The position numbers and the translations under genes are program-made. The notes under the pieces were generated by a model. The model made no database searches. It had not been told where the DNA came from and saw only the letters and a list, made by a program, of their open reading frames with translations. From assembly GCA_905147135.1 (NCBI GenBank), contig LR990056.1, forward strand, positions 5,032,001 through 5,096,000: a stretch of 64,000 nucleotides of DNA, written 5' to 3'. This document shows, piece after piece, positions 23,601-62,598 of this stretch. Origin of the DNA: Blastobasis lacticolella. Its lineage: Eukaryota > Arthropoda > Insecta > Lepidoptera > Blastobasidae. Within the stretch, counting starts at the first letter, position 1; every line of letters starts with the position of its first letter.

Positions 23601-26600
23601 TGGTTCTCAGCTTTCTTTCATTAAAAATTTTTTTTTTTTTTAATTAATATTCGGTGACAAACTCACACTGCGCCATCTAGCCCCAAACTAAGCAAAGCTT
23701 GTGATATGGGTGCTAGATAACCGATATACTACTTAAATACTTTTAAATACATACTTATTATAAATAGCACACCCAGACCCGTAACAGAAATTAAAATTCA
23801 ACATTTAAATTTCTGCCCGGCCGGGAATCGAACCCGGGACCTCTTGCGTGTTGACCACTGAACCACTCAGGTCGTCATTTCAGTACTACCTTTCCGCCCG
23901 CGTGAACTACAAGTTATATCGCGTGGGAGTAAAAAGTAGCCTATGCATCCTCAGGTTCTAAACTATCTCCATGCCGAATTTCATCAAAATCCGTGAAAGC
24001 CATGAAAGCGTAACAGATAGACAGGAGCTACTTTCGCATTTATAATATTAGTAGTCTACTCGTGACCATGACGCATGCAACTGCGTCGAAATATTAAGGT
24101 AAAAACAATACTAACCGTGGTAACAAACCCGATTATGTGTAGTGAATAACCACGAAAGTCTACCACTAAAACCCATATTAGTAGAGATACGTAGGCTAGT
24201 TCCGACATCTCTCGGTGTCGGTTCAATTCAATTCTATTTATTACGGTAACACAGGTAAAAAGATATAACATCAATCAATACATATAAGAAAACAGCAAAA
24301 AAAGTGTGCCTGTACATTGAATATATCTACAAAAAATAATTTAGGTCGATGATGATCATTTAAAATGGTCGCTCGGAATAAAGAACTGCCCCGAAAACCG
24401 GCGCGGATCTAGTTCCTAAAATAGGTTGTGGGCAAGACCATCTGAAAATCGACGAAGTGCGAGTTCGATTTCGCAGCAAAGTATTTAAAGGTCTTGCACT
24501 AAGTTTTCCATTTATCGTTAGCCTATGGACCTCAATTACGTTGGTATGCCACAGCACAGCAATTCCGAATCGATTTATTAATTTTGCAATTTGTTATAAA
24601 TGTTTTTTATTGTTTATTTTATATTATGTGATTGTTGTAATGTGGTGTCGTTGTTTATCGATAAATATCTTTCATTCATTCATTGAATCAGGGTTGTGGG
24701 CATGCCCGTCATGCTCACAACGCTAGATCCGCGCGTGCCTGAAAACTATTTCCACGCGTACGAAGTCGCGGGCAAAAGCGATTACATGTAAGTAAGTCGG
24801 TTGGTTGATATGGTGTCCGGTCCCCAGCGGCGGCAGGTGGAGCGCAACAAGCTGTCGAAGGAGAAGCAGCTGCGCGAGGCGGCCGAGCGCGAGCGCGCCG
24901 CGGCCGAGCAGCGCCTCATGCAGTACCAGGACGAGATACGGCTCGCTAATGAGGCGCTGGTCAGTATGCGGTCATACGTGTGTTTAGTATACTCATATGA
25001 CTTGAAGTCCTTTATTTTATATTATTTTATTTACTTAAGGAAAACCAACAGCAATGATATCCATATTAAATAATATCGGCATCACAGGGTCAATTACAGG
25101 TTTCCACTGATAGAAATTGGATAAACTTATATTTAACTAAAAGTTAAGCATAACGAACAGTCTGTAAGACTACAATTTCAAACTTAAACTAAAACTTACC
25201 TTCAATACCCTAAAGTAATGCAACAATAGTTTGCTTAATCCAGCAACCTAAGTCGTCAGAGAGCAGTCAAAATGGAATAGCATACACATACACACAGCAT
25301 AAGGTCTATTTTTGTATCACTTAAATATTTTACGCGCGGGGCATGATACAAAAATGGACCATAGTCTGTGAGCAATACATTTCGTTTTGCTCTCTGATGA
25401 CTTAAGTTGCTGCATTCATCAAAGGTGTAATCAGCCCCTTATTTGGTAAACAAATAAGGCGTAGAATCAGAGACGTTCAGTAGAAAGAAATTCATACATT
25501 GACCTGTTTCTGTTGCTCTCGCGTAAATATATAGATGTCAATGGTTTCTAAATTTGTAGCAGTAAGTGATGATCAAATTTATATTTCCAGTGAAATTACA
25601 GTCAGTCGCAGTTTCATCACAATGTTTTCCCTCACCGTAAAAGCATCGGTTAGAGTTCAACTGTAATCTCGTTACCGAGTCGGTCCCCTTAACCACTGGC
25701 CAACGTCCATAAAACTAACACCACATAGAACTTTAAAACTGCAATATTACCCAACTCCCCACAGCGGCGATCGGAGGAGACCGCGGAACTGCTGGCGGAG
25801 AAAGGCCGCGTGGCTGAGGAGGAGGCGTCCCTGCTCGCGCAGAAGGCGTCTGATGCCGAGCGGGAGAACGCTAGGCTTCGGTTGTCGGCCATCAGGACCG
25901 AGGAGGAGAAGGTACTGTGTCGTTTTAAAACCTGAACGGAATGTTTGAAAGATGCAAATCGTTGATCTGTAATAATTTCAAGGGCCTGTCACGCTTTGAT
26001 AGAGTGAACAATTTGAGTGAATAGATTTAACTTATTTATGAATAAGACCGCATATCTATGAACAATTCAGCATTTAGTATTCTCCCCGCATTCTCTCTAG
26101 TATTCTCTCCGTATCTATGAAGAATTCAGCATTTAGTATTCTCCCCGCATTCTCTCTAGTATTCTCTCCATATCTATGAACAATTCAGCATTTAGTATTC
26201 TCCCCGCATTCTCTATAGTATTCTCTCCATATCTATGAACAATTCAGCATTTAGTATTCTCCCCGCATTCTCTCTAGTATTCTCCCCGTATCTATGAACA
26301 ATTCAGCATTTAGTATTCTCCCCGCATTCTCTCTAGTATTCTCCCCGTATCTATGAACAATTCAGCATTTAGTATTCCCCCCCTAGGTGTCACTAGAGCG
26401 CGCCACCCGCGAAGCGACAGCGCTCACCGCGCGTCTCGTCGAGGAGTCGGAGCGTCGCGCGGCCGAAGCCGAACGGCTCAAGGGCGAGCTTCGCGCCGCG
26501 AGACGCGCCGAGGCCAACGCCAAGGAACGCTTGCTCGCCTTCCTGGGGAGGACCTCTACGGGGTCGCTGCCACAGGTCAGTGGGCTCCCCCCTAGGTGTC

Positions 26601-29600
26601 TGGAGTTAGCCACCCGCGAGGCGACTGCCCTCACTGCGAGGCTGGTCGGCGGAGCGGCTCAAGGGTGAACTGCGCGCACATAGGTAGCGCTGACTGTCCT
26701 ACATCGCGCTAGAGAAGTGTGCGAACTTTCGCGGCATATATACTACTTCCGACAATCAACTGTTGGACTCCTGGTCCCCTGGACATAACAACCGGCCTCT
26801 GGTAAGTGCTCTTTTTCACCTTCTGCATCTTCGCTTCACCGCCAAAGTGGGGACCCACAATGTGGTGGTGAAGTATTTACGCACCTGGCCGGTTGTTGTG
26901 ACCAGGGGTATAATAGTTGATCGTCGTAAGTAGTATACGAGTATATGCCGCGGAATTTGATACACTTCTCTAGCGCGATGTAGGATTGTCAGTGCCATCT
27001 ATGTGCGGATGTTTGCCAACCTTGTGTTCATGTGTTAGTAATGTTGAGTTTCCATATTGGAGCGATGTATTATGTCACTACATACCTCTTGAACGACCCC
27101 ACGTCATAGACAAAAAGAAATACTGTGGCTGGGAGCTCATTCAACATCCGAATATGGATTATGGATAATAACATACAATTCCCAACCCCAGAGCGCGTCC
27201 TTCCATTCTCGATAGCTTAGGCTAGGCTTAGCCCCACATGGCATTTATTTACCCTATTTTGATTTCTATGAGCACCCCAGGGCGCGTCCCCCCATCCTCG
27301 ATAGCTTAGGCTAGGCTCGGCCCCCCTTCCGCTGTCCCCGACTATGTGAAATAAAGGAACACAGCCCGGCCCCCCGCAGCCCGCGTCCCCGGTGCCCTCC
27401 AGCCTGTTCCCGTCGACGTGCTCGCTGCCCGCGTCGCTGGGCGCGCCGCCGCCATGACAGCTTGGCCCCACGGGGCATTCCTACCCTGTCCCACCCTAGA
27501 GCGCGTCCCCGCCTACTCGGTAGCTTAGGCTAGGCTCGGCCCCTTCCCGCTGTCCCCGACTATGTGAAATAAAGGAACACAGCCCGGCCCCCCGCAGCCC
27601 GCGTCCCCGGTGCCCTCCAGCCTGTTCCCGTCGACGTGCTCGCTGCCCGCGTCGCTGGGCGCGCCGCCGCCATGACAGCTTGGCCCCACGGGGCATTCCT
27701 ACCCTGTCCCACCCCAGGGCGCGTCCCCGCCTACTCGGTAGCTTAGGCTAGGCTCGGCCCCTTCCCGCTGTCCCCGACTATGTGAAATAAAGGAACACAG
27801 CCCGGCCCCCCGCAGCCCGCGTCCCCGGTGCCCTCCAGCCTGTTCCCGTCGACGTGCTCGCTGCCCGCGTCGCTGGGCGCGCCGCCGCCATGACAGCTTG
27901 GCCCCACGGGGCATTCCTACCCTGTCCCACCCTAGAGCGCGTCCCCGCCTACTCGGTAGCTTAGGCTAGGCTCGGCCCCTTCCCGCTGTCCCCGACTATG
28001 TGAAATAAAGGAACACAGCCCGGCCCCCCGCAGCCCGCGTCCCCGGTGCCCTCCAGCCTGTTCCCGTCGACGTGCTCGCTGCCCGCGTCGCTGGGCGCGC
28101 CGCCGCCATGACAGCTTGGCCCCACGGGGCATTCCTACCCTGTCCCACCCTAGAGCGCGTCCCCGCCTACTCGGTAGCTTAGGCTAGGCTCGGCCCCTTC
28201 CCGCTGTCCCCGACTATGTGAAATAAAGGAACACAGCCCGGCCCCCCGCAGCCCGCGTCCCCGGTGCCCTCCAGCCTGTTCCCGTCGACGTGCTCGCTGC
28301 CCGCGTCGCTGGGCGCGCCGCCGCCATGACAGCTTGGCCCCACGGGGCATTCCTACCCTGTCCCACCCTAGAGCGCGTCCCCGCCTACTCGGTAGCTTAG
28401 GCTAGGCTCGGCCCCTTCCCGCTGTCCCCGACTATGTGAAATAAAGGAACACAGCCCGGCCCCCCGCAGCCCGCGTCCCCGGTGCCCTCCAGCCTGTTCC
28501 CGTCGACGTGCTCGCTGCCCGCGTCGCTGGGCGCGCCGCCGCCATGACAGCTTGGCCCCACGGGGCATTCCTACCCTGTCCCACCCTAGAGCGCGTCCCC
28601 GCCTACTCGGTAGCTTAGGCTAGGCTCGGCCCCTTCCCGCTGTCCCCGACTATGTGAAATAAAGGAACACAGCCCGGCCCCCCGCAGCCCGCGTCCCCGG
28701 TGCCCTCCAGCCTGTTCCCGTCGACGTGCTCGCTGCCCGCGTCGCTGGGCGCGCCGCCGCCATGACAGCTTGGCCCCACGGGGCATTCCTACCCTGTCCC
28801 ACCCTAGAGCGCGTCCCCGCCTACTCGGTAGCTTAGGCTAGGCTCGGCCCCTTCCCGCTGTCCCCGACTATGTGAAATAAAGGAACACAGCCCGGCCCCC
28901 CGCAGCCCGCGTCCCCGGTGCCCTCCAGCATGTTCCCGTCGACGTGCTCGCTGCCCGCGTCGCTGGGCGCGCCGCCGCCATGACAGCTTGGCCCCACGGG
29001 GCATTCCTACCCTGTCCCACCCTAGAGCGCGTCCCCGCCTACTCGGTAGCTTAGGCTAGGCTCGGCCCCTTCCCGCTGTCCCCGACTATGTGAAATAAAG
29101 GAACACAGCCCGGCCCCCCGCAGCCCGCGTCCCCGGTGCCCTCCAGCCTGTTCCCGTCGACGTGCTCGCTGCCCGCGTCGCTGGGCGCGCCGCCGCCATG
29201 ACAGCTTGGCCCCACGGGGCATTCCTACCCTGTCCCACCCTAGAGCGCGTCCCCGCCTACTCGGTAGCTTAGGCTAGGCTCGGCCCCTTCCCGCTGTCCC
29301 CGACTATGTGAAATAAAGGAACACAGCCCGGCCCCCCGCAGCCCGCGTCCCCGGTGCCCTCCAGCCTGTTCCCGTCGACGTGCTCGCTGCCCGCGTCGCT
29401 GGGCGCGCCGCCGCCATGACAGCTTGGCCCCACGGGGCATTCCTACCCTGTCCCACCCTAGAGCGCGTCCCCGCCTACTCGGTAGCTTAGGCTAGGCTCG
29501 GCCCCTTCCCGCTGTCCCCGACTATGTGAAATAAAGGAACACAGCCCGGCCCCCCGCAGCCCGCGTCCCCGGTGCCCTCCAGCCTGTTCCCGTCGACGTG

Positions 29601-32188
29601 CTCGCTGCCCGCGTCGCTGGGCGCGCCGCCGCCATGACAGCTTGGCCCCACGGGGCATTCCTACCCTGTCCCACCCTAGAGCGCGTCCCCGCCTACTCGG
29701 TAGCTTAGGCTAGGCTCGGCCCCTTCCCGCTGTCCCCGACTATGTGAAATAAAGGAACACAGCCCGGCCCCCCGCAGCCCGCGTCCCCGGTGCCCTCCAG
29801 CCTGTTCCCGTCGACGTGCTCGCTGCCCGCGTCGCTGGGCGCGCCGCCGCCATGACAGCTTGGCCCCACGGGGCATTCCTACCCTGTCCCACCCTAGAGC
29901 GCGTCCCCGCCTACTCGGTAGCTTAGGCTAGGCTCGGCCCCTTCCCGCTGTCCCCGACTATGTGAAATAAAGGAACACAGCCCGGCCCCCCGCAGCCCGC
30001 GTCCCCGGTGCCCTCCAGCCTGTTCCCGTCGACGTGCTCGCTGCCCGCGTCGCTGGGCGCGCCGCCGCCATGACAGCTTGGCCCCACGGGGCATTCCTAC
30101 CCTGTCCCACCCTAGAGCGCGTCCCCGCCTACTCGGTAGCTTAGGCTAGGCTCGGCCCCTTCCCGCTGTCCCCGACTATGTGAAATAAAGGAACACAGCC
30201 CGGCCCCCCGCAGCCCGCGTCCCCGGTGCCCTCCAGCCTGTTCCCGTCGACGTGCTCGCTGCCCGCGTCGCTGGGCGCGCCGCCGCCATGACAGCTTGGC
30301 CCCACGGGGCATTCCTACCCTGTCCCACCCTAGAGCGCGTCCCCGCCTACTCGGTAGCTTAGGCTAGGCTCGGCCCCTTCCCGCTGTCCCCGACTATGTG
30401 AAATAAAGGAACACAGCCCGGCCCCCCGCAGCCCGCGTCCCCGGTGCCCTCCAGCCTGTTCCCGTCGACGTGCTCGCTGCCCGCGTCGCTGGGCGCGCCG
30501 CCGCCATGACAGCTTGGCCCCACGGGGCATTCCTACCCTGTCCCACCCTAGAGCGCGTCCCCGCCTACTCGGTAGCTTAGGCTAGGCTCGGCCCCTTCCC
30601 GCTGTCCCCGACTATGTGAAATAAAGGAACACAGCCCGGCCCCCCGCAGCCCGCGTCCCCGGTGCCCTCCAGCCTGTTCCCGTCGACGTGCTCGCTGCCC
30701 GCGTCGCTGGGCGCGCCGCCGCCGGCCGCCGACGCGCCGGAGCCGAACGCCTACGAGCTGGTCGAGGATTTGGACGACTCCGAGCCGCATATTCACCGGT
30801 TGAGCTTGGAGATCGAGAAGGAGAGGTGGGTGATACTTGCTTGTTTTTCTTGTTCTTAGCGTGTTCAATGGTCGTAGATTATATGTTGTAACTTCGAATT
30901 TGAGATACCCGGACGGCGATGTAAAAGAGGAGAGGTGGCATACATAAATTTCGCTTAAACAAATGAGCAGGCATTCGACGGCCATGTTCTTCTTTTTTCT
31001 TAAAAGGCTGCATAGGTCTCTGTTGGTATGAAATACCTATAGACAGATTACTGGCTACGCCCTTGGTTGGCGCTACTGAGACGTGAGGTTTGACGTCAAA
31101 ATAAAGTTTTGTCCTAGGCTAAAATCCATCCGTCATGCAGCAGTTGTTTCGGTCAATTAGTTTTTTGACAATGGATCTTACTTCTCAGTAGTAGATTTTG
31201 AAATCATCATGTCCTCTATCAAATGTTATCTAGTGGATTTTGAAATCTCGAAATTTGACATTCGTTTTTTTTTCTACGAAATGACAAGCAGACAGCCCAC
31301 CTGATGGTAAGCGGTAACTGTCGCCCATTACATCTACGAATCACGCATTTAGGTTGCTGGTAACAAAAATGCATCGCAGGTGCGTTGTCACTGTGAGAAC
31401 TGAGACGCCTCGTGCCTGTAATTCGATTTTGACACTCTTAAGGGCTTAGTAGTCTGAAATTTAGTGGTTCGTTACTAGTTACCACTAAAACCGTGTAAAC
31501 GATTATTCATTAAATAATAACTTAAAATTAAGTTATTATTATTATGAGTTAATAGGCGAGCAGCCAAAATCTGATGTGCCTATATCTGGGCTGGTGTCTT
31601 TAATTATTGTTCTCGATCAGCGGAAACACTACACCTCATTGTACAGAGTTTTTGGCTCACTTTTAACTACTCATCGAGTCTAAGTTGCTCATTTAGTTAC
31701 CACTTAATCATGATATATAATATGACGATCTTACGATAACATGTCTGCTACGCAGAGATCCTGGGTTCGATACAGACAGAAATTTTTTTTAAATTTCTGT
31801 TACGGGTCTGGGTGTTATATTATGTATAATAAGTATGTACTTAAAAGTATATAAGTAGTCTATCAGTTATCTGGCACCCATTACACAAGTTTTGCTAAGT
31901 GTGGTGCTATATGGCGCTGTGGCAATTGTCCAAGCAGATATTTATATTCACTTGTATCCCTTTAGAGTGGAATACCTGGCCAAATCCAAACACCTGCAAG
32001 CCCAGCTGGACAACCTTCGCTGCGAGTTCAGCGGCTTGCGCGTGGACGCGCGCGCCGCGGACGCCGCCGCTGCTTTGGACCGCCTACACGAGGCCGCCGC
32101 GAGGAACGGCGACGACAAGTACTCCACGCTGCGAAGGCTCAAGCAGGGCTCCACCAAGACCCGGGTCGCCTTCTACGAGGAGCTGTAA
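14651..32188 (+). CDS. Mer: Merlin (NF2) FERM-domain tumour suppressor, complete
   Basis: Thirteen coding exons: 14651-14740, 15228-15357, 15569-15690, 16323-16406, 16993-17117, 17591-17693, 19457-19663, 22465-22569, 24828-24959, 25765-25911, 26387-26575, 30635-30825 and 31966-32188. They join in frame to 615 codons plus TAA, the usual Merlin length. The FERM domain spans about residues 15-310 ([52 protein letters not shown]). The coiled-coil is about 320-475, a proline-rich linker begins exon 12, and the C-terminal domain ends TRVAFYEEL. The serine in [10 protein letters not shown] (about 535) matches the PAK-regulated serine of human Merlin. The protein is a membrane-cortex scaffold upstream of Hippo/Warts signalling. 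Two adjacent ATGs exist (14651, 14654) and either may start translation. The Blue Box reads YQMTSEM instead of YQMTPEM. Confidence 0.96.
17118..17285 (+). mobile_element. RTE-type LINE 3' fragment at the exon 5 donor
   Basis: Directly after the Merlin exon 5 donor the frame remains open to 17268 and encodes [12 protein letters not shown]...GRPMYSEL. This resembles the C-terminus of RTE-clade proteins (WMR-A ... GEAYVQ-W). A GAT/ATG microsatellite follows, as in RTE tails. Confidence 0.5.
17946..19136. mobile_element. Long fold-back element, arms about 500 bp
   Basis: The sequence from 17951 (accgcaaatcgatgtacag) to about 18455 recurs in inverse from about 18635 to 19127. About 180 bp of spacer remains, and this is itself partly self-complementary (ctccccctccc against gggggggg). 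Corresponding frames in both arms encode the same peptide segment ([17 protein letters not shown]) with substitutions, confirming that the arms are diverged copies. It lies in Merlin intron 6. It is either a fold-back transposon or a repeat pair; no transposase is present. Confidence 0.8.
19245..19440 (-). mobile_element. LINE/SINE 3' fragment
   Basis: On the minus strand the piece ends in TCTGAAATAAAGATTTG followed by TTTG repeats, a polyadenylation-signal ending typical of retroposons. It lies just before Merlin exon 7. Confidence 0.4.
19670..22460. other. Merlin intron 7, few recognisable features
   Basis: A 2.8-kb intron. The piece at 20870-21010 (tgcagatgat, gtggccgaggtggcgacaaa) is related to sequence at 58240-58330 and, in inverse, 58880-58965, so it belongs to a dispersed repeat. 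A GC-rich patch lies at 21140-21310. No exon-like or family-specific coding sequence could be supported. Confidence 0.4.
22643..22785 (+). repeat. 22-bp tandem repeat, about six copies
   Basis: The unit acggacgagttagtcaatgg plus ta repeats about six times with scattered substitutions. It begins about 75 bp downstream of the Merlin exon 8 donor, in intron 8. Each unit contains a GTAACG or GTAAGG donor-like hexamer. Confidence 0.85.
22857..23160 (-). mobile_element. RTE-type repeat fragment
   Basis: The sequence begins with a CAT microsatellite followed by cagcccatacataacagtcc and ggacatagggcctctccca, the inverse of the widespread lepidopteran RTE 3' end. Only the non-coding tail is recognisable. 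It lies in Merlin intron 8. Confidence 0.5.
23648..23875 (-). mobile_element. tRNA-derived SINE, copy 1
   Basis: On the minus strand a tRNA-like head carries an A box (TGGTTCAGTGG) and a perfect B box (GGTTCGATTCC). It is followed by the body AAATTTCTGTTACGGGTCTGGGTGT and ...GGGGCTAGATGGCGCAG. The same body occurs at 31735-31930. The RNA polymerase III promoter elements look intact. It lies in Merlin intron 8. Confidence 0.7.
24058..24155 (+). repeat. Dispersed repeat, copy shared with 51421-51515
   Basis: The sequence cgtgaccatgacgcatgcaa, followed by gtcgaaatatt and ccgtggtaacaaacccgat, matches 51421-51515 in inverse. Its first 35 bases also match 5249-5285. The class is unknown. Confidence 0.55.
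24394..24745. mobile_element. Possible TIR element before Merlin exon 9
   Basis: A perfect 12-bp inverted pair, GCGCGGATCTAG (24401-24412) and its inverse (24723-24734), has weaker similarity outside it. An internal cattcattcattg microsatellite suggests that a retroposon tail is also present. The ends are not firm. Confidence 0.35.
26053..26386 (+). repeat. 59-bp tandem repeat abutting Merlin exon 11
   Basis: Nearly six copies of a 59-bp unit (tatctatgaacaattcagca, then tttagtattctccccgcatt and ctctctagtattctctccg). The last copy is truncated and runs straight into the exon 11 acceptor (ccccctag at 26379-26386). Each unit contains pyrimidine-rich CTCTCTAG, so each carries an acceptor-like site. 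Confidence 0.9.
26590..26685 (+). pseudogene. Decayed partial duplicate of Merlin exon 11
   Basis: Fifteen bases past the exon 11 donor, cccccctaggtgt repeats the acceptor and start of exon 11. The following sequence encodes [15 protein letters not shown] before a deletion of about 30 bp. It resumes at gcggagcggctcaagggtga with a frame break and ends. Compared with 26380-26490 it shows many substitutions, so the duplication is old. No donor follows, and it is probably non-functional. Confidence 0.8.
26690..27180. other. Intron 11 sequence with a small inverted pair and LINE scrap
   Basis: Sequences around 26700 (ctacatcgcgctagagaagtg) and 26960-26985 (cacttctctagcgcgatgtag) are exact inverses, and ccaccgccaaagtgg-type segments pair inside, giving a fold-back of about 280 bp (26695-26990). 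At 27085-27165 a piece matches the 3' part of the LINE at 9735-9800 (tacctcttgaacga, tactgtggctggga). Confidence 0.6.
27190..30634 (+). repeat. 218-bp tandem array carrying the exon 12 splice acceptor
   Basis: Fifteen near-identical 218-bp units precede authentic Merlin exon 12. Their acceptor-equivalent exon starts are at 27365, 27583, 27801 and so on every 218 bp to 30417. Each unit holds intron sequence with AATAAA, the acceptor GGAACACAG, the first 89 nt of exon 12, and a 38-bp segment starting atgacagcttgg. In the exon reading frame the copied part meets TGA immediately (CCA TGA). A degenerate half-unit without exon sequence lies at about 27190-27270, which suggests the order of events. 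Only a few substitutions separate the units (for example 28930 C to A; ccccaggg in place of ccctagag after the second), so the array is recent or homogenised. Confidence 0.97.
31265..31345 (-). mobile_element. LINE 3' tail fragment
   Basis: A T-run is followed by a degenerate gacaagcagacagcccacct and gatggtaagcggt. This is the same 3' end as the LINE at 9603-9660, read on the minus strand. It lies in Merlin intron 12. Confidence 0.5.
31735..31930 (+). mobile_element. tRNA-derived SINE, copy 2
   Basis: A degenerate tRNA-like head (gggttcgatac) is followed by aaatttctgttacgggtctg and ggtgt, with the body ending tggtgctatatggcgctgtgg. It has the same body as the minus-strand copy at 23648-23875. 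It ends about 35 bp before the Merlin exon 13 acceptor, so it may supply part of the branch-point region. Confidence 0.65.
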
Positions 32189-35100
32189 GGTGAGGAGCTG
32201 TGAGGTGAGCAGGTTGTTGTGACAGTGGCGAGGCCTACACGAGGCCGCCGCGAGGAACGGCGACGACAAGTACTCCACGCTGCGAAGGCTCAAGCAGGGC
32301 TCCACCAAGACCCGGGTCGCCTTCTACGAGGAGCTGTAAGGTGAGGAGCTGTGAGGTGAGCAGGTTGTTGTGACAGTGGCGAGGCCTACACGAGGCCGCC
32401 GCGAGGAACGGCGACGACAAGTACTCCACGCTGCGAAGGCTCAAGCAGGGCTCCACCAAGACCCGGGTCGCCTTCTACGAGGAGCTGTAAGGTGAGGAGC
32501 TGTGAGGTGAGCAGGTTGTTGTGACAGTGGCGAGGCCTACACGAGGCCGCCGCAAGGAACGGCGACGACAAGTACTCCACGCTGCGAAGGCTCAAGCAGG
32601 GCTCCACCAAGACCCGGGTCGCCTTCTACGAGGAGCTGTAAGGTGAGGAGCTGTGAGGTGAGCAGGTTGTTGTGACAGTGGCGAGGCCTACACGAGGCCG
32701 CCGCGAGGAACGGCGACGACAAGTACTCCACGCTGCGAAGGCTCAAGCAGGGCTCCACCAAGACCCGGGTCGCCTTCTACGAGGAGCTGTAAGGTGAGGA
32801 GCTGTGAGGTGAGCAGGTTGTTGTGACAGTGGCGAGGCCTACACGAGGCCGCCGCAAGGAACGGCGACGACAAGTACTCCACGCTGCGAAGGCTCAAGCA
32901 GGGCTCCACCAAGACCCGGGTCGCCTTCTACGAGGAGCTGTAAGGTGAGGAGCTGTGAAGTGAGTAGGTTGTTGTGACAGTGGCGAGGCCTACACGAGGC
33001 CGCCGCGAGGAACGGCGACGACAAGTACTCCACGCTGCGAAGGCTCAAGCAGGGCTCCACCAAGACCCGGGTCGCCTTCTACGAGGAGCTGTAAGGTGAG
33101 GAGCTGTGAGGTGAGCAGGTTGTTGTGACAGGGGCGAGGCCTACACGAGGCCGCCGCAAGGAACGGCGACGACAAGTACTCCACGCTGCGAAGGCTCAAG
33201 CAGGGCTCCACCAAGACCCGGGTCGCCTTCTACGAGGAGCTGTAAGGTGAGGAGCTGTGAAGTGAGTAGGTTGTTGTGACAGTGGCGAGGCCTACACGAG
33301 GCCGCCGCGAGGAACGGCGACGACAAGTACTCCACGCTGCGAAGGCTCAAGCAGGGCTCCACCAAGACCCGGGTCGCCTTCTACGAGGAGCTGTAAGGTG
33401 AGGAGCTGTGAGGTGAGCAGGTTGTTGTGACAGTGGCGAGGCCTACACGAGGCCGCCGCAAGGAACGGCGACGACAAGTACTCCACGCTGCGAAGGCTCA
33501 AGCAGGGCTCCACCAAGACCCGGGTCGCCTTCTACGAGGAGCTGTAAGGTGAGGAGCTGTGAAGTGAGTAGGTTGTTGTGACAGGGGCGAGGCCTACACG
33601 AGGCCGCCGCAAGGAACGGCGACGACAAGTACTCCACGCTGCGAAGGCTCAAGCAGGGCTCCACCAAGACCCGGGTCGCCTTCTACGAGGAGCTGTAAGG
33701 TGAGGAGCTGTGAGGTGAGCAGGTTGTTGTGACAGGGGCGAGGCCTACACGAGGCCGCCGCGAGGAACGGCGACGACAAGTACTCCACGCTGCGAAGGCT
33801 CAAGCAGGGCTCCACCAAGACCCGGGTCGCCTTCTACGAGGAGCTGTAAGGTGAGGAGCTGTGAGGTGAGCAGGTTGTTGTGACAGTGGCGAGGCCTACA
33901 CGAGGCCGCCGCGAGGAACGGCGACGTCAAGTACTCCACGCTGCGAAGGCTCAAGCAGGGCTCCACCAAGACCCGGGTCGCCTTCTACGAGGAGCTGTAA
34001 GGTGAGGAGCTGTGAGGTGAGCAGGTTGTTGTGACAGTGGCGAGGCCTACACGAGGCCGCCGCAAGGAACGGCGACGACAAGTACTCCACGCTGCGAAGG
34101 CTCAAGCAGGGCTCCACCAAGACCCGGGTCGCCTTCTACGAGGAGCTGTAAGGTGAGGAGCTGTGAAGTGAGTAGGTTGTTGTGACAGTGGCGAGGCCTA
34201 CACGAGGCCGCCGCGAGGAACGGCGACGACAAGTACTCCACGCTGCGAAGGCTCAAGCAGGGCTCCACCAAGACCCGGGTCGCCTTCTACGAGGAGCTGT
34301 AAGGTGAGGAGCTGTGAGGTGAGCAGGTTGTTGTGACAGTGGCGAGGCCTACACGAGGCCGCCGCGAGGAACGGCGACGTCAAGTACTCCACGCTGCGAA
34401 GGCTCAAGCAGGGCTCCACCAAGACCCGGGTCGCCTTCTACGAGGAGCTGTAAGGTGAGGAGCTGTGAGGTGAGCAGGTTGTTGTGACAGTGGCGAGGCC
34501 TACACGAGGCCGCCGCAAGGAACGGCGACGACAAGTACTCCACGCTGCGAAGGCTCAAGCAGGGCTCCACCAAGACCCGGGTCGCCTTCTACGAGGAGCT
34601 GTAAGGTGAGGAGCTGTGAGGTGAGTAGGTTGTTGTGACAGTGGCGAGGCCTACACGAGGCCGCCGCGAGGAACGGCGACGACAAGTACTCCACGCTGCG
34701 AAGGCTCAAGCAGGGCTCCACCAAGACCCGGGTCGCCTTCTACGAGGAGCTGTAAGGTGAGGAGCTGTGAGGTGAGCAGGTTGTTGTGACAGTGGCGAGG
34801 CCTACACGAGGCCGCCGCAAGGAACGGCGACGACAAGTACTCCACGCTGCGAAGGCTCAAGCAGGGCTCCACCAAGACCCGGGTCGCCTTCTACGAGGAG
34901 CTGTAAGGTGAGGAGCTGTGAAGTGAGTAGGTTGTTGTGACAGGGGCGAGGCCTACACGAGGCCGCCGCAAGGAACGGCGACGACAAGTACTCCACGCTG
35001 CGAAGGCTCAAGCAGGGCTCCACCAAGACCCGGGTCGCCTTCTACGAGGAGCTGTAAGGTGAGGAGCTGTGAGGTGAGCAGGTTGTTGTGACAGGGGCGA

Positions 35101-37158
35101 GGCCTACACGAGGCCGCCGCGAGGAACGGCGACGACAAGTACTCCACGCTGCGAAGGCTCAAGCAGGGCTCCACCAAGACCCGGGTCGCCTTCTACGAGG
35201 AGCTGTAAGGTGAGGAGCTGTGAGGTGAGCAGGTTGTTGTGACAGTGGCGAGGCCTACACGAGGCCGCCGCGAGGAACGGCGACGTCAAGTACTCCACGC
35301 TGCGAAGGCTCAAGCAGGGCTCCACCAAGACCCGGGTCGCCTTCTACGAGGAGCTGTAAGGTGAGGAGCTGTGAGGTGAGCAGGTTGTTGTGACAGTGGC
35401 GAGGCCTACACGAGGCCGCCGCGAGGAACGGCGACGACAAGTACTCCACGCTGCGAAGGCTCAAGCAGGGCTCCACCAAGACCCGGGTCGCCTTCTACGA
35501 GGAGCTGTAAGGTGAGGAGCTGTGAGGTGAGCAGGTTGTTGTGACAGTGGCGAGGCCTACACGAGGCCGCCGCGAGGAACGGCGACGTCAAGTACTCCAC
35601 GCTGCGAAGGCTCAAGCAGGGCTCCACCAAGACCCGGGTCGCCTTCTACGAGGAGCTGTAAGGTGAGGAGCTGTGAGGTGAGCAGGTTGTTGTGACAGTG
35701 GCGAGGCCTACACGAGGCCGCCGCGAGGAACGGCGACGACAAGTACTCCACGCTGCGAAGGCTCAAGCAGGGCTCCACCAAGACCCGGGTCGCCTTCTAC
35801 GAGGAGCTGTAAGGTGAGGAGCTGTGAGGTGAGCAGGTTGTTGTGACAGTGGCGAGGCCTACACGAGGCCGCCGCAAGGAACGGCGACGACAAGTACTCC
35901 ACGCTGCGAAGGCTCAAGCAGGGCTCCACCAAGACCCGGGTCGCCTTCTACGAGGAGCTGTAAGGTGAGGAGCTGTGAAGTGAGTAGGTTGTTGTGACAG
36001 GGGCGAGGCCTACACGAGGCCGCCGCAAGGAACGGCGACGACAAGTACTCCACGCTGCGAAGGCTCAAGCAGGGCTCCACCAAGACCCGGGTCGCCTTCT
36101 ACGAGGAGCTGTAAGGTGAGGAGCTGTGAGGTGAGCAGGTTGTTGTGACAGGGGCGAGGCCTACACGAGGCCGCCGCGAGGAACGGCGACGACAAGTACT
36201 CCACGCGGCGAAGGCTCAAGCAGGGCTCCACCAAGACCCGGGTCGCCTTCTACGAGGAGCTGTGAGGTGAGCAGGTTGTTGTGACAGGGGCGAGGCCTAC
36301 ACGAGGCCGCCGCGAGGAACGGCGACGACAAGTACTCCACGCGGCGAAGGCTCAAGCAGGGCTCCACCAAGACCCGGGTCGCCTTCTACGAGGAGCTGTA
36401 AGGTGAGGAGCTGTGAGGTGAGCAGGTTGTTGTGACAGTGGCGAGGCCTACACGAGGCCGCCGCGAGGAACGGCGACGTCAAGTACTCCACGCTGCGAAG
36501 GCTCAAGCAGGGCTCCACCAAGACCCGGGTCGCCTTCTACGAGGAGCTGTAAGGTGAGGAGCTGTGAGGTGAGCAGGTTGTTGTGACAGTGGCGAGGCCT
36601 ACACGAGGCCGCCGCGAGGAACGGCGACGACAAGTACTCCACGCTGCGAAGGCTCAAGCAGGGCTCCACCAAGACCCGGGTCGCCTTCTACGAGGAGCTG
36701 TAAGGTGAGGAGCTGTGAGGTGAGCAGGTTGTTGTGACAGTGGCGAGGCCTACACGAGGCCGCCGCAAGGAACGGCGACGACAAGTACTCCACGCTGCGA
36801 AGGCTCAAGCAGGGCTCCACCAAGACCCGGGTCGCCTTCTACGAGGAGCTGTAAGGTGAGGAGCTGTGAAGTGAGTAGGTTGTTGTGACAGGGGCGAGGC
36901 CTACACGAGGCCGCCGCAAGGAACGGCGACGACAAGTACTCCACGCTGCGAAGGCTCAAGCAGGGCTCCACCAAGACCCGGGTCGCCTTCTACGAGGAGC
37001 TGTAAGGTGAGGAGCTGTGAGGTGAGCAGGTTGTTGTGACAGGGGCGAGGCCTACACGAGGCCGCCGCGAGGAACGGCGACGACAAGTACTCCACGCGGC
37101 GAAGGCTCAAGCAGGGCTCCACCAAGACCCGGGTCGCCTTCTACGAGGAGCTGTGAGG
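32189..37158 (+). repeat. 151-bp tandem array derived from the end of Merlin exon 13
   Basis: After the real Merlin TAA (32186-32188), the last 106 nt of coding sequence (from cctacacgag at 32083) plus 45 nt of 3' UTR are repeated 33 more times. Copies start at 32234 and every 151 bp, with one 136-bp unit (36160-36295) lacking a 15-bp gaggagctgtaaggt-type segment. Units carry shared variants: cgcgagg/cgcaagg, gacgacaag/gacgtcaag, gacagtgg/gacagggg and cacgctgcg/cacgcggcg. The block from 35406 recurs from 36297 in the same variant order (891 bp), and another block recurs at 1,359 bp (9 units). The array would form a very long 3' UTR if transcribed. Each copy contains TAAG-GTGAGG and TGAG-GTGAGC donor-like sites. 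A hexamer AATAAA lies at 37266. Confidence 0.97.
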
Positions 37159-37159
37159 T

Positions 37160-37250
37160 GAGAAGGTTGTTGTGACACAGGGCAAGCGGGTCGTCTGATG
37201 GAATAGACTGTGAGCGCGCCGCAGGGTATCCTATGTCATCGAGAACAACA
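37160..37250 (-). mobile_element. LINE 3' tail scrap at the array end
   Basis: The sequence acagggcaagcgggtcgtct followed by gatggaa matches the LINE 3' region at 9635-9655. The array breaks off exactly where this repeat begins. Confidence 0.45.
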
Positions 37251-37265
37251 ATAACGGCCGTTTTT

Positions 37266-37574: not shown

Positions 37575-37579
37575 CGATC

Positions 37580-49439: not shown

Positions 49440-49441
49440 TA

Positions 49442-51345: not shown

Positions 51346-51420
51346 AAAACCTTTTAACTCTAGTAGAAGTCAAGATTGACCACTTAGATAAATCTAAGGT
51401 AAAACAAAACAGTGCCCTAA

Positions 51421-51515: not shown

Positions 51516-51539
51516 TTGACTGGAGCCGTTGACTAGTGT

Positions 51540-57000: not shown

Positions 57001-60000
57001 GTATGTATGTATGTAAGATGTAAGGGTGGTCTTACCAGCCAGCATGACGAACACGAGCCTTGGCAGTCCCAGCACCAGGTCGTCCTTCTCCAGCTTGAAG
57101 AACATGCTGGCCAGCACTCGCTTTTCCAGCTGATAGGAGAAATAAACAAGTTATTACTTAACCATATTATAATTATTTATACATACATCAATTATAATTA
57201 TTTATAAACATATTTATGTACGCTATGTTAAAGGTCAATCGTTCATGTTGTAATCTTGAATCGGTGCCTCGACAATTTTCTTTTCTGTAACCAAGGTTAA
57301 GCAATCTTCCACCACTCGTAGTATATGCCAAGCCCCCCCTCCCCTTAAAGTTTTTACGTAGTATTGACAAGCATGATTTTTAATTATTTCGCAGGCAGAA
57401 AGTGTAACAAATGAAAATAATTTGACTCATATTTGCAATTTCTTGCGGCGAAATCGACTACATAACAAAAATTTAAGCCCCCTCCCCCCCGCTCCTGTGA
57501 CTAAGTTTAGTATTTTGAAGATCTCTCTCCCACTAATCGGGTCACGTAGTATGGGTGTGTTCCCTTAGGTGTGCCTCCTAATACTGTAGGCGAAGCGGGG
57601 TTGACCAAGGTATTCCGCTGCAGACCCTGACTGGTTGAACAGTCTCTATATAGTATAAAACAAAGTCGCTTCCCGATGTCTGTCCCTATGTAATGTACGA
57701 TTAGATCTACGCCACGGATTTTAATGCGGTTTTCAACGACAGATAAACAAATTCAAGAGGAAGCTTTATAAGCAAGAAAAAGGGTAGATAGGGGTAAACC
57801 TAATGCGCACACCAAACGCGAACGAAGTCGCGCCGGGTCCACTAGTTACTACATCAATAAAAACATATTCCTCACCTTCAAATGCCGCACTTTAGTGACA
57901 TATCCCTCAGCCGCTAGCGACAGTTGGACCTCCTTTCCCAAAAACCGAACCGGAATGCCGACCACGAATCGGCTGACCGCGTCTGTCTTGTTCTCCGCCA
58001 CCGGCTTCACGGAGTTCATTGGGAACACTTTCACTGTGGCGCCTGGGAGGTAGGTGCTGTCGTAGGCTAGGACTAGGCCTGGGTAACGGGGAAAAAATCA
58101 TCTTGTCAAATGACATATTCTGACGTAATATTTTAAAATTTTAATAATTTCTTATTCGTATTTTTGTATACCGATGACAGGTCACAGAGGAGCTATATTT
58201 AGACTTGAATTGTATGTAAATAACCTGTGTACCACATAATTAATATCTGACACCTGATAGTTAAGATAAGATATTGCACATTGGTAGCCGAAGTGGCGAC
58301 AAGTTTTTTCGATAATTTGATACCCATGTCATGTCAAAAATAATAATCATCTTCATCTTAGCGTTATTGTAACGGCTGTGCTATCGCGCGCGAGGGCTCG
58401 GGGTCCGTCTCGACCATGATCCAGGTTTTGGCAGATCAGGTAATTACATTGGAGCAACTGCCACCTGACTTCCATGACCCTGTTACCAGGGGAACCTGAC
58501 CAGATTGGATAATGAATACATAGGAACACATTCAGTCGCCTGAACGTAATCGTCGTTATTGAAATGGCGTCTAATCTAAATCTAAATAATAAAATCGAGT
58601 GGACAATATTTTACTGCATCTGCAATATGCAATATAGAAAAGATTCTATTGTATTGTTCAGCCACACTCTACTGTTGTGATATGGTGCGTCCTTTTCTAC
58701 TCGACATGAAGTTTGCTGTGATGGTCGATTTACATTGGTCAAGGACAGAGGCGAGTGGTGAGTACAAGGACCCATACGGGCGAGTGACTGTTTACATTAC
58801 AGCGTCCAGTATCATTTCCCTGTCAATATAAACGTCAACAAATATTTGTCATTTTGTGTAAAACTCAACTACTGCGCATTACACTACTACTGCGCAATAA
58901 CTGTCGGGTGTCAGTTACTATGGACAAAACATGGGCACCGGATCATCTGCATGGCGACAAACTAACCCACTTCTACTTGACTTATCCTATTTGATTTTTT
59001 TCCAAATAAGCATTTAAACATGAAATTTGATTTCTGTGACAATGAGGGTAATTATTTAGTGACGTCACTCACCGGTAACGTATATGATGTTGGGATCCTC
59101 TTCGAGTTTTATCTCCTCGAACTGCCCGCCAGGGATCTGGTCGGCGTCCTCGCGCTGCATCACTATGTCTATGTGCTTCAGGACACCCTCCTCCACGCGC
59201 CACTTCACTATCTGAGGGTTAGGGAGGATTTTTGTTGAAAATAATTGTGTAAAATAGTAAAGGAAGTGTACAAGACAGTAGCAAGGTTTTAAAATTCGTC
59301 TGTCACGTGTGGGAATTATAGGAAAGAAGTACTTATTTTCATAACATTATGACGTTATACCTATTGTTTGCGTCGACGAGAATTCGACTCATGCGACTTA
59401 AAAAGCACTTTATTTAGGTGCCGAATAATGCAAGTATTTGGCGATATTTATTATGTTTTATATAGCTGTTGGTACTTCAACAAATAAATGGGCTGTATTT
59501 TGTTGCATAGGGGAAAAATTGTAACCGGTACCGTGGAAGGCAAAAGACCAAAAGGCCGGAGCCCCAAGCGATGGCTCAATCAGGTGTCGGAATGTCTGGA
59601 AATGCTGGTGAGCGCGACCCATCAAGAGGCCGCCGATCGCAGCTCGACAGAGTCACGATCCTCAGCATTGAGGGTCCAATTTAGGAGGGAAGGGGAAAAA
59701 TACATTTGAAATGACATATACCTCGATGAACTAATAGAGAAGGCTTGATTATCTCCATGGCAACCCCATAGCTGGACCAGCACGAGAGTAGGAGGAGTCA
59801 TATCCTTTCGTATAATGCACGTTTTTTTCCGAACAACAAACGAGGGAAGATATTACCATGGCCAGATCTCCTACCCGCTACAGCCCCCACTCACCTGGTC
59901 CCGGTAGCCGTGGCAGCGCACGATGACGGTGTAGCGCGCGGGCGGCAGCAGGGCGCGGTAGATGGCGGCGTTGCGCGACCCGCGGCACCGCCGCAGCACG

Positions 60001-62598
60001 CACTCACCTGGTCCCGGTAGCCGTGGCAGCGCACGATGACGGTGTAGCGCGCGGGCGGCAGCAGGGCGCGGTAGTGCGCGGCGTTGCGCGACCCGCGGCA
60101 CCGCCGCAGCACGCACTCACCTGGTCCCGGTAGCCGTGGCAGCGCACGATGACGGTGTAGCGCGCGGGCGGCAGCAGGGCGCGGTAGTGCGCGGCGTTGC
60201 GCGACCCGCGGCACCGCCGCAGCACGCACTCACCTGGTCCCGGTAGCCGTGGCAGCGCACGATGACGGTGTAGCGCGCGGGCGGCAGCAGGGCGCGGTAG
60301 TGCGCGGCGTTGCGCGACCCGCGGCACCGCCGCAGCACGCACTCACCTGGTCCCGGTAGCCGTGGCAGCGCACGATGACGGTGTAGCGCGCGGGCGGCAG
60401 CAGGGCGCGGTAGTGCGCGGCGTTGCGCGACCCGCGGCACCGCCGCAGCACGCACTCACCTGGTCCCGGTAGCCGTGGCAGCGCACGATGACGGTGTAGC
60501 GCGCGGGCGGCAGCAGGGCGCGGTAGTGCGCGGCGTTGCGCGACCCGCGGCACCGCCGCAGCACGCACTCACCTGGTCCCGGTAGCCGTGGCAGCGCACG
60601 ATGACGGTGTAGCGCGCGGGCGGCAGCAGGGCGCGGTAGTGCGCGGCGTTGCGCGACACGCGGTACTGGCGCGCGGGCCCGGCCACCGCCAGCGTCGCCG
60701 TCCGCATCGGCGCGCCGGTCGCGTTGCGGACGTAGCCCACCACGCCTGCCACGGATTGTTATTATTTGTATTGTTTATCGGGCAGGCAGTTGTGAACAAC
60801 TGTTGGGTTGCCTGCATCCGGCTTCTCTCTAAACAAAATTATTCTGCCTGTTGTGATCTTAAGAATTTGTGTAATCTATTTTTAAATCCGTTTGTGTTCC
60901 CTGCGGTCACCACCGCCTCAGGCAGCCCGTTCCAGGGTTTATGTAGTAAGTTACACCAGTTACACAAGCTAGCATTACCCTCGATTAGGTCAGACGCTGT
61001 CCGTATGACCGAGAGATCGATAGGATCTTAAGTGGAGGTGGGTTATTGTCCCCATGCCTGTTTAAACATTCATTCAAATTCAACCATTTCTATTATTATG
61101 TAACTAAAAGTGTAAATCTGTTGGCAAATAAAATAAATAAATAAATAAAATTATGGTACCAACTTATCTGACCCGGTGACAGCATGGCTGTTGTTGATAT
61201 GACAATTTTTTCAGTGGCCACCGGATCCGATAAGTTTGTACGACTATACGACTTTTAATGTCTCGAATGGTACCACTAATAAGCATGCCGAAACTAGCAT
61301 GTGTAACTGGAGCTATAGAGTTGTTCATACAACAGTTCTGTGGGTCCAGCCAAGATATAATCGCTTTGCAACAACTCTACTGCCACTGACGATCGGAACC
61401 CGTCGGCTTGTTCGGCGTGTGGGGCGTTCGTAGATCTGCGCAGTACTGCGAACGCTTCGAAGCCGGAAAACGTATCCGACGGGTTCCGATTATCAGTGAC
61501 AGTGGAGTTGCTACGGAGCGATTTACATCTTGCACCCGCTGGTGAGAAAGGGCGAGCGATTTTAAAGGCGTCCTCGGTATTGTCCGAAGAGTGTAACCAG
61601 TTTCCCAAAAATGTACTCTATGTGTAGTACACATAGAGGTTTTTGTTGTTCACTGAGCGTACTACACTGTGCACATTTTAAGACGTGGGTCTCAAACGCT
61701 TCGGACGTTCGTCCCGCAGACAACTGTATTAAATATAGCATAAGATCCGAGCATTAGAGCGGTATCTGGAAGTCTCGAGCGATTCGACACCGTTCTTGGG
61801 ATTTGAGTACCGCCCAAGGGCCTCCGATGTAAATTAATTTCGGTTAATAATACTTGATCCTACCCACTATATAATATAACAAAAGTTTTCGTGACACAAT
61901 AACAAAAAAGAAACCGTACACCACAAACCTGTATTAGTGAGTTCGATGAAGCTCATAAGGCCAGCGATGTTGTCCCTCCACACCCATCCGATGTCGTCCC
62001 CGGCCGGCATCTTGCAACAACTGAGGCCGACCGATATGATCGGCGTATTGAACCTCTCACAGAGCACATTCACCAAACTCTCACGAACATCATTCTGGTT
62101 TAGCAGCGAACACTCGTACTTGTCGCTCGTACTTCTGGCGTCCTGGTACTTTTCGGCGAATTTCTGGTATATGCCCTTGGATAACTCGGGGAAAGCCACG
62201 TCTTCTGTCCCCGAAGCGAGCTCCAGAACCAAGTCGTACTTCTCAGATTCTAGGAGATCAACGAAAGCCTTCTCTCTCGTGTAATTCGACAAGGGATTGA
62301 CGTTCTTCTTCGTCAAATAGTTGTATAGGCTGTCACCGAATTCTTCTTCGATGGGTTGGATGGCGCATTTGTCGCCTCCATCGTAATTTCTGAGGACTTT
62401 CTCGTATAGGATGTCCAAGTTTGGTATGAAATGCAGGACGGTGTTGTTCAGTATGTGCTTGTGGATTGGCTCGCCCAGGGAGTATGCGGTGGTGAGGTGA
62501 CGTGCGAAGTTGAGGAGCATTTCCTGCCCTAGCGGCTGGGAGGCGTAGAAACTACTCATGATTGCAATGTGGAACTTAGTCTCCTCCGGTGAACCCAT
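54066..62598 (-). CDS. CPD: Carboxypeptidase D (silver), C-terminal seven exons, partial
   Basis: Minus-strand exons 61929-62598, 60573-60745, 59073-59211, 57876-58078, 57036-57129, 55686-55826 and 54066-54163 join in frame to 505 codons plus TGA. The 5' part lies right of the window. The first exon is a metallocarboxypeptidase-like domain in which the usual zinc-binding HGNE stretch reads YASQPLGQEM, so it lacks metal ligands, as in the inactive third domain of carboxypeptidase D. Transthyretin-like beta modules follow (GYVRNATGAPMRTATLAV; YRALLPPARYTVIVRCHGY). One membrane helix spans an exon junction (LVFVMLAG-LVGVCVVALASW). The tail is basic then acidic (PPSDTDSEEDIVLL), consistent with trans-Golgi sorting. 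The enzyme family trims C-terminal Lys/Arg in the secretory pathway. Confidence 0.93.
55246..55480 (-). pseudogene. Doubtful Cu/Zn superoxide dismutase-like fragment
   Basis: A minus-strand frame contains VNVKGTIQGYKTFGLHNHG, which resembles the V-x-G-x-(I/V)-x-G-(L)-x-G-x-H-G-F-H-x-H pattern of Cu/Zn SOD, followed by TMAGKLSK. Spacing and neighbouring residues fit poorly. It lies in the last carboxypeptidase D intron. It may be a coincidence. Confidence 0.2.
56335..56470 (-). mobile_element. LINE 3' fragment
   Basis: tatacggtaggcaaacaggc, followed by aagcgggccacctgatggaa and gcgttgcccacctct, is very close to 9610-9715 of the large LINE. Confidence 0.65.
57643..57845 (+). mobile_element. Non-autonomous Helitron, about 200 bp
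   Basis: It begins near tctctatatagtataaaaca then aagtcgcttcccg, and ends with hairpin CGCGAACGAAGTCGCG, spacer and CTAG before T. It is the best-preserved of the family with copies at 3240 and 42525. It lies just downstream of exon 57876-58078 of carboxypeptidase D, in an intron. Confidence 0.75.
58370..58560 (-). mobile_element. SINE family 2, minus-strand copy
   Basis: In inverse it shows gttcaggcgactg, ccaatctggtcaggttccc and ctgccaaaacctggatcatg, the body shared with 62730-63070. Confidence 0.55.
59505..59720 (+). mobile_element. RTE-like LINE C-terminal fragment
   Basis: The frame encodes GTVEGKRPKGRSPKRWLNQV and ATHQEAADRSS, the GKR-xGR-P-xRW-x-D/N...A-DR ending of lepidopteran RTE-type proteins, without the rest of the enzyme. 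Confidence 0.6.
59893..60572 (-). repeat. 113-bp tandem array carrying a carboxypeptidase D splice donor
   Basis: Following the real exon end (60573, reading leftward), the last roughly 85 nt of that exon plus about 28 nt of intron are repeated six times. This gives donor sites CAG-GTGAGT at 60572, 60459, 60346, 60233, 60120, 60007 and 59894, exactly 113 bp apart. Units are almost identical; the most distal differs at a few bases (gtagatggcgg for gtagtgcgcgg). Because 113 is not a multiple of three, use of a downstream donor changes the frame. The start of the copied block lies in a short stretch where exon and intron resemble each other (cgac-cgcgg). Confidence 0.96.
60755..61010 (-). mobile_element. 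LINE 3' fragment abutting a carboxypeptidase D acceptor
   Basis: On the minus strand it encodes KPWNGLPEAVVTAGNTNGFK and NRLHKFLRSQQAE-stop, a LINE protein C-terminus. The non-coding tail ends aatacaaataataacaatcc, immediately before tggcag, the acceptor of exon 60573-60745. Confidence 0.65.
61020..61150 (+). mobile_element. Retroposon tail with (aaat)n
   Basis: Sequence ending ctgttggcaaataaaataaa then taaataaataaaa has the look of a LINE/SINE poly(A)-type tail. The body is too short to classify. Confidence 0.4.
61159..61238. mobile_element. Small inverted-repeat element, about 80 bp
   Basis: AACTTATCTGACCCGGTGAC at the left pairs with the inverse of gtggccaccggatccgataagttt at the right. 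The centre is 30-35 bp. Confidence 0.45.
61333..61546. mobile_element. Fold-back element, about 214 bp
   Basis: The strongest stem is ACTGATAATCGGAACCCGTC-type sequence, seen at 61377-61412 against 61474-61512 in inverse. Pairing extends outward through aagatataatcgcttt against its inverse near 61525, and inward through gcgttcg. It is an imperfect hairpin over its whole length and lies in a carboxypeptidase D intron. Confidence 0.65.

What the first reader, a model, noticed from the sequence alone, without database searches (positions are those of the whole stretch)
26053..60572. Three independent tandem arrays, each made from an exon edge with a splice-type signal
Within 33 kb two unrelated genes carry arrays whose unit straddles a coding exon boundary: 218 bp (Merlin exon 12 acceptor, 15 extra copies), 151 bp (end of Merlin exon 13 with stop and donor-like sites, 33 extra copies) and 113 bp (carboxypeptidase D exon donor, 6 extra copies). 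Ordinary minisatellites have no reason to sit on exon edges three times in one locus. The sequence shows the arrays directly. A shared local mechanism (GC-rich exon edges prone to slippage or rolling-circle-like re-insertion, or a replication or transcription conflict) is inference. An assembly or polishing artefact is the main competing explanation, although phased variants between units argue against simple read duplication.
Basis: partly seen in the sequence, partly recalled or inferred. Interest (0 to 1): 0.88.

Follow-up and report, generated by a model that had tools for sequence, protein, structure and literature searches.

The report
Exon-edge tandem arrays in one lepidopteran
In this butterfly or moth genome, short gene pieces that include the end of an exon have been copied head-to-tail, up to dozens of times, in at least a dozen genes, probably because splicing (or a stop codon) hides the extra copies from the protein.

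Summary
The three arrays are real: 218 bp (Merlin exon-12 acceptor, 16 copies), 151 bp (end of Merlin coding sequence, 34 copies), 113 bp (carboxypeptidase D exon donor, 7 copies). Arrays 1 and 3 straddle splice junctions supported by homology; array 2 straddles the stop codon, and splicing there is not shown. The host is a lepidopteran with a searchable 577-Mb assembly. A mechanism particular to this locus is not supported: the same kind of array occurs in other genes. A three-donor pattern gave 284 matches; three control patterns gave 59, 36 and 76. I examined 18 places from three scans: 11 are arrays on an exon's donor edge (AKT, CENP-E-like kinesin, GTP-binding protein 1, SID-1-like, HD-PTP and others), 2 on a coding end, 5 not exonic or unresolved; with the non-splice motif, 4 of 6 are donor-edge. 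Typical unit: last 70-105 bp of a GC-rich exon plus 12-38 bp of intron. Best explanation: frequent tandem duplication in GC-rich exons, of which those leaving an intact splice site or stop ahead of the copies survive, then grow unseen by the mRNA. Known in kind, new in scale and regularity. Acceptor and wider-period scans did not complete; no reads or RNA were available.

The parts
27273..30723 (+). Array 1: 218-bp unit (143 bp of intron end with the acceptor, first 75 bp of Merlin exon 12), 16 acceptor copies; the last, at 30650, is the one that continues into the exon
30650..30825 (+). Merlin exon 12 (true copy)
   Evidence: tblastn with lepidopteran Merlins, splice-site sequence
32082..37162 (+). 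Array 2: 151-bp unit (last 107 bp of Merlin coding sequence with the stop codon, about 44 bp beyond), 34 unit starts; one 136-bp unit at 36159
31966..32188 (+). Merlin exon 13 up to the stop codon (the true coding copy is the first unit of array 2)
59881..60663 (-). Array 3: 113-bp unit (last 85-91 bp of a carboxypeptidase D exon plus 22-28 bp of intron), 7 donors; the first, at 60573, is the true exon end
60573..60745 (-). Carboxypeptidase D exon encoding part of the regulatory-like domain
   Evidence: tblastn with P0121-P0123; Pfam CarboxypepD_reg 31.9 bits, just under its 32.3 cut-off
26053..26382 (+). 59-bp x 5.6 array ending 4 bp before the exon-11 acceptor
26585..26660 (+). Decayed second copy (about 80%) of the acceptor edge of Merlin exon 11, just past that exon
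   Evidence: self-comparison; both stretches printed

Best explanation
These are members of a genome-wide class of exon-edge tandem arrays. Step 1 (inferred): GC-rich exonic segments of about 100-220 bp are often duplicated in tandem in this lineage. Step 2 (inferred, fits the anatomy): a duplication inside an exon would shift the frame or alter the protein and is lost. One that crosses the exon's 3' edge and carries the whole donor, or crosses the 5' edge with enough intron for a working acceptor, or contains the stop codon, leaves an intact gene, because the true copy ends before the first extra copy (or begins after the last). Step 3 (inferred, in line with published splice-site behaviour): exon definition pairs the two splice sites closest across the exon, so the extra copies stay in the intron or 3' UTR and do not reach the protein. 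Step 4 (block-wise variants seen in array 2): freed from selection, the arrays grow by multi-unit duplication or unequal exchange to dozens of near-identical copies.
For: The donor triple pattern gives 284 matches; its reverse TGAGTGGA 59, the non-splice motif TGGAGATG 36, and that motif reversed 76; the four motifs occur 3, 2, 3 and 2 times in 200 kb. Of 18 places examined outside the window, 11 are donor-edge and 2 coding-end arrays. Of the 6 places found with TGGAGATG, 4 are donor-edge. In 13 units of 99-127 bp (CPD included) the intron part is 12-38 bp, so each carries a complete donor or donor-like site. Of those 13 periods 4 are multiples of 3, as chance would give, and none of the window's three is, so the copies are not kept in frame. 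GC-matched 113-bp segments lie wholly inside an exon more often than on an edge (0.50 against 0.18), yet no array resolved here lies wholly inside an exon. The first decoy acceptor of array 1 leads to a TGA after 25 codons and the other units differ little. The exon-proximal copy equals the array consensus and the farthest copy is the most diverged in all three window arrays. PMC9225289, abstract: with large flanking introns the sites closest across the exon are chosen.
Against: No transcript was seen, so use of the exon-proximal copy is inferred from the need to keep the protein intact. Donor against acceptor edges could not be compared: the acceptor scan did not complete. Only periods of about 98-128 bp were scanned. 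The 76 matches of the reversed non-splice motif were not looked at. TGGAGATG (CATCTCCA) may itself favour coding sequence, and in one of the 4 cases it overlaps the donor. Exon-internal 3n arrays, which the model also predicts, were not looked for. Breakpoint homology is mixed: clear in a few arrays, absent in AKT and C20. The exon part is more uniform than survivorship requires. The splice scores are crude: 4 of 18 real donors here score under 5, and most real acceptors under 8.
Confidence: 0.66

Rival explanations
1. A mutational process aimed at the 3' ends of exons makes the arrays (for example breaks or re-replication where RNA polymerase pauses at the donor, or an R-loop over the GC-rich exon end), with survivorship only a secondary filter.
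For: Donor edges dominate among places found with a non-splice motif (4 of 6); the exon part, one mismatch allowed, is 78-109 bp in 14 measured arrays (13 plus Merlin array 2).
Confidence: 0.2
2. Ordinary GC-rich minisatellites that happen to lie in exons because exons are the GC-rich part of this genome; the edge is hit because units are about as long as exons.
For: GC-matched placement in the window, array loci left out, straddles an edge with probability 0.68, 0.26 and 0.11 for the three sizes.
Against: Does not explain why the arrays with resolved exons in the scans are on donor edges or coding ends rather than inside exons. It is, however, close to step 1 of the preferred explanation.
Confidence: 0.08
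3. Assembly or polishing artefact.
For: In array 1, 12 of 16 units show no difference from the consensus, and reads were not available.
Against: Array 2 has phased variants recurring in blocks: a-e-f at copies 9, 18, 25 and 31. Arrays with unrelated units occur on many chromosome-size contigs, and far-end copies are diverged.
Confidence: 0.04
4. Functional arrays: multiple splice sites kept by selection for alternative splicing or, for array 2, for regulation through a spliced or very long 3' UTR.
For: A minisatellite giving multiple donors is used in human IFI6 (PMC4526556, passage). Array 2 has 32 AAG|GTGAGG and 26 GAG|GTGAG sites.
Against: Array 1 units contain no donor-like site of score 5 or more, and the decoy read leads to an early stop; conservation between species could not be tested.
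Confidence: 0.06

Closest known systems
Internal tandem repeats at exon-intron boundaries in human segmentally duplicated genes (2009, PMC2812944; passages seen)
   Same: Tandem repeats straddling exon-intron boundaries; copies may be spliced out; new introns or alternative splicing
   Different: There the repeats were found by comparing human paralogs; here single genes carry up to dozens of copies, in many genes of one insect, and those resolved are mostly on donor edges
Minisatellite giving multiple splice donor sites in human IFI6 / 6-16 (Turri et al. 1995, seen only as cited in PMC4526556)
   Same: Each repeat unit carries a donor
   Different: One gene, and (recalled) a 12-bp unit; two downstream repeats are used as donors. 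Here units are mostly about 100-150 bp with 70-108 bp of exon
Human introns from tandem arrays (Zhuo et al. 2007; seen only as a reference in PMC2812944; not held)
   Same: By its title, tandem arrays and splice signals
   Different: Content not read
[quoted passage not shown] potato RdRp PMC4974935, Drosophila PMC2891723; passages seen)
   Same: A short tandem duplication of an exon segment or intron-exon edge brings splice signals along
   Different: Those cases give new introns within the message; here the copies seem to stay outside it and multiply

Membership tests
Minisatellite / VNTR | head-to-tail copies of a unit of tens to a few hundred bp with high identity | tested here: met
Minisatellite / VNTR | copy-number variation between individuals | not testable with these tools
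   one assembly only
Tandem repeats at exon-intron boundaries | unit straddles a true exon boundary | tested here: met
   arrays 1 and 3 by homology and splice sequence; 11 of 18 places elsewhere, 8 of them with a protein match
Tandem repeats at exon-intron boundaries | array 2: splice junction inside the unit | tested here: inconclusive
   stop codon in all 34 units; strong donor-like sites; candidate acceptor at 37714; no transcript
Tandem-duplication intron gain | duplicated segment supplies both donor and acceptor of a new intron | tested here: inconclusive
   array 1 units show no donor-like site of score 5 or more, array 3 units no acceptor-like site of score 8 or more, but real sites in the window also fall under these cut-offs
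IFI6-type multiple-donor minisatellite | several repeat copies used as donors in mRNA | not testable with these tools
   no RNA data
Dispersed satellite or transposon | unit present elsewhere in the genome | not tested
   the own-genome DNA search covered only 26053-27053; the three units were not searched

The most novel reading that the evidence does not exclude
A mutational process in this lineage acts on the last ~90 bp of GC-rich exons at the donor, tied to co-transcriptional events there, and has seeded perhaps hundreds or more genes (an extrapolation) with arrays of up to dozens of identical functional-looking donors: a natural genome-wide experiment in splice-site competition and a reservoir for new exons and introns.
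Probability: 0.25. Interest if true: 0.85.

Novelty: new variant of a known kind. Interest (0 to 1): 0.68.

Why it matters
If it holds, this genome offers many natural constructs with 3 to more than 40 near-identical competing donors or acceptors beside a coding exon. That allows a direct test of how exon definition picks one of many equal sites. It also shows a tolerated route by which exon pieces accumulate beside genes, and a recurrent trap for gene annotation and transcript assembly.

Tried and rejected
Special DNA structure as the common cause: single-strand DNA folding of the three units (first 150 bases for arrays 1 and 2) and five control stretches gave ordinary z-scores; of the three units only array 1 has a G-quadruplex motif.

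Local mechanism: rejected because of the genome-wide scans.

Polar growth from the exon outward in array 2: Spearman 0.31, p 0.08, not convincing.

Breakpoint homology: 8 arrays compared. The summed score exceeds the null, but one array (HD-PTP, score 13) is confounded by a single mismatch inside the unit, two score 0, and the cut at the first mismatch makes the measure ambiguous.

A KS test on the intron fraction held one wrongly anchored value (GTP-binding protein 1, corrected) and missed the SID-1-like array; I do not use it. The far-end comparison stopped on an error before three arrays and did not find its anchor in a fourth.

Baseline: 20 stretches of 10 kb at preset, not random, places on C1-C10 held 2 arrays with a unit of at least 60 bp and 2.5 copies, both AT-rich; too few for a rate. 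The reversed-motif control proved not clean, since TGAGTGGA can lie within a GTGAGTGGA donor, and 4 of its 7 arrays are donor-edge.

Not achieved: the acceptor-motif scan, the AGGTAAGT scan and the wider-period scan did not complete. Ten literature searches listed no report that I recognised as such arrays in Lepidoptera; the library lacks most subscription papers.

Full report
What is in the window. The window lies in a lepidopteran genome: the best named hits of the Merlin query are Lepidoptera at 74-82% identity (an unnamed one reaches 85% over part), and those of the neighbouring KIAA2013-like protein are Lepidoptera at up to 79% (an unnamed one 80%). Merlin runs on the + strand in 13 coding exons from 14654 to 32188. 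Carboxypeptidase D lies on the - strand, with seven exons recognised from 62598 down to 54067. Tandem Repeats Finder confirms the three arrays. Array 1 has 16 acceptor copies in a unit of 143 bp of intron and the first 75 bp of exon 12; the last copy continues into the exon. Array 2 has 34 unit starts with the last 107 bp of the Merlin coding sequence (stop included) and about 44 bp beyond; one unit is 136 bp. Array 3 has 7 copies of the last 85-91 bp of a carboxypeptidase D exon and 22-28 bp of intron. None of the three periods is a multiple of three.

What is corrected. Array 2 is a coding-end array. Its donor-like sites after the stop score higher (11.1 and 9.9) than every Merlin donor (at most 9.1) on a matrix I recalled, and a candidate acceptor with AATAAA motifs beyond it lies at 37714, but a spliced 3' UTR is not shown. 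Two further features sit at exon edges: a 59-bp array that ends 4 bp before the exon-11 acceptor, and a decayed second copy of the exon-11 acceptor edge at 26585-26660.

Chance inside the window. With arrays collapsed to one unit, random units of 218, 151 and 113 bp straddle an exon edge with probability 0.123, 0.085 and 0.057. With GC at least that of the unit minus 0.05 the figures are 0.83, 0.35 and 0.18, or 0.68, 0.26 and 0.11 with the array loci left out. So the window alone gives only moderate evidence beyond GC. All five arrays with a repeat score above 200 lie on or within 75 bp of an exon edge (uniform placement 8.6e-5). These figures are after the fact, since the window was picked for its arrays.

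The genome. The window is contig C17:5032001-5096000 of an assembly of 577,033,349 bases in 45 contigs. The pattern of three AGGTGAGT with gaps of 90-120 gave 284 matches; its reverse, TGAGTGGA, gave 59. A motif of the same letters chosen for lack of splice likeness, TGGAGATG, gave 36, and its reverse 76 (these 76 were not examined). Matches within one array are not independent, so arrays matter more. The listed places of the donor scan, which stop within C6, are 6 arrays; the window's own array on C17 lies beyond the list. The reversed motif gives 7 places (one shared), TGGAGATG 6. I fetched all or part of these 18 distinct places. Eleven are arrays on an exon's donor edge. Eight of them have a protein match: AKT (PDB, E 4.3e-33), a laminin-EGF gene and an EF-hand gene with a 35-bp unit, a dymeclin-like gene (E 1.9e-5, under the Pfam cut-off), HD-PTP (PDB 5lm1, E 7.7e-7; Pfam under cut-off), a CENP-E-like kinesin, GTP-binding protein 1 (PDB, E 5.4e-18; no Pfam match) and a SID-1-like gene. 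Three have an open frame into a donor but no family (C20:2.25M, C13:5.30M, C26:4.92M; for the last the upstream end was not reached). Two are coding-end arrays: a dynein light intermediate chain and an unnamed frame on C1 that ends in TAG just before GTGAGT, without a Pfam or PDB match. Five are not exonic or unresolved: C6:2.62M and C23:4.50M are arrays not tested for coding, C7:2.48M is an imperfect two-copy repeat, C27:3.55M is a diverged repeat, and C28:8.22M shows no array by Tandem Repeats Finder. So with the motif chosen without a splice signal 4 of 6 places are donor-edge arrays; in three the motif lies inside the exon, in one (C13:5.30M) it overlaps the donor.

Anatomy. In 13 measured units of 99-127 bp (AKT, laminin, dynein chain, dymeclin, C1, carboxypeptidase D, HD-PTP, C20, C26, kinesin, C13:5.30M, GTP-binding protein 1, SID-1) the part before the donor or donor-like site is 70-105 bp when cut at the first mismatch and 78-106 bp with one mismatch allowed; the part after it is 12-38 bp. 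Merlin array 2 gives 108-109 bp. The scan window fixes the period but not this split. Unit GC is 0.61-0.81 in the units for which one search printed it. Four of the 13 periods are multiples of three. Of eight arrays compared at the far end, six lose identity to the unit within 5-15 nt of the last donor (AKT 5, C13:5.30M 5, C20 7, dymeclin 10, HD-PTP 14, laminin 15) and two later (kinesin 31, C1 56).

How it most likely works. A tandem duplication that crosses an exon's 3' edge and carries the complete donor leaves the exon, from its acceptor to the first donor, as it was. Exon definition pairs the sites closest across the exon when introns are large (abstract of PMC9225289), so the extra copies stay in the intron. 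For an acceptor array the true copy is the last, next to the exon's own donor; units of array 1 bring 143 bp of intron and no donor-like site of score 5 or more, though 4 of 18 real donors here also score below that. For a coding-end array the stop in the first copy shields the rest. Duplications inside an exon lack such a shield. Use of the first decoy in array 1 would give a stop after 25 codons, and inclusion of array-3 copies shifts the frame and meets a stop by the second extra unit, so the protein would suffer if decoys were used often. The recurrent variant blocks in array 2 (a-e-f at copies 9, 18, 25, 31; repeated 4-unit blocks 3 against 0.28 expected, P 0.009) point to multi-unit duplication or unequal exchange. 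Shown: the arrays, their edges, the variants. Inferred: the duplication mechanism, the purge of internal events, the use of the exon-proximal site.

Relation to what is known. Tandem repeats at exon-intron boundaries that may be spliced out are described in human paralogs (PMC2812944, passages), a donor-bearing minisatellite in IFI6 (PMC4526556, passages), and tandem-duplication intron gain in plants and flies (PMC4974935, PMC2891723, passages). The present class differs in number, copy count and the regular donor-edge unit. I recognised no report of it in Lepidoptera in the listings of ten searches.

Limits. One assembly, no reads, no RNA. Only periods of about 98-128 bp and three motifs were scanned; the acceptor scan did not complete. 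The donor excess over acceptors is therefore a lead, not a measured ratio. The units themselves were not searched for copies elsewhere.

Noticed in passing
window 26675-27007: Inverted-repeat element (about 70% self-complementary) in Merlin intron 11; its arms give over 100 further matches in the genome. Looks like a MITE.
   Followed up: partly
window 9855-12400 (-): Remains of a reverse-transcriptase element: open frames with a sub-threshold RVT_1 match (29.4 against 29.6 bits); a similar stretch shows in the frames of L035 beside AKT.
   Followed up: no
proteins P0001-P0036: 15 of the 36 best Merlin homologs have an insertion of 10 or more residues against Ostrinia Merlin, 14 of them in the part encoded from the end of exon 11 to exon 13; some hold what looks like a second copy of an exon edge (P0002, P0010). 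May be annotation in part.
   Followed up: partly
window 22643-22785: 22-bp x 6.5 array beginning 74 bp past the donor of Merlin exon 8.
   Followed up: no
Papilio machaon (P0036, P0122, P0165) and Eumeta (P0032, P0123): Contigs of the same length hold Merlin, carboxypeptidase D and (Papilio) KIAA2013, which suggests the genes are neighbours in other Lepidoptera too.
   Followed up: no
genome C1 (L029-L030) and C4 (L033-L034): Coding-end arrays in which a stop codon is followed within about 0-20 bp by GTGAGT, like Merlin array 2.
   Followed up: partly
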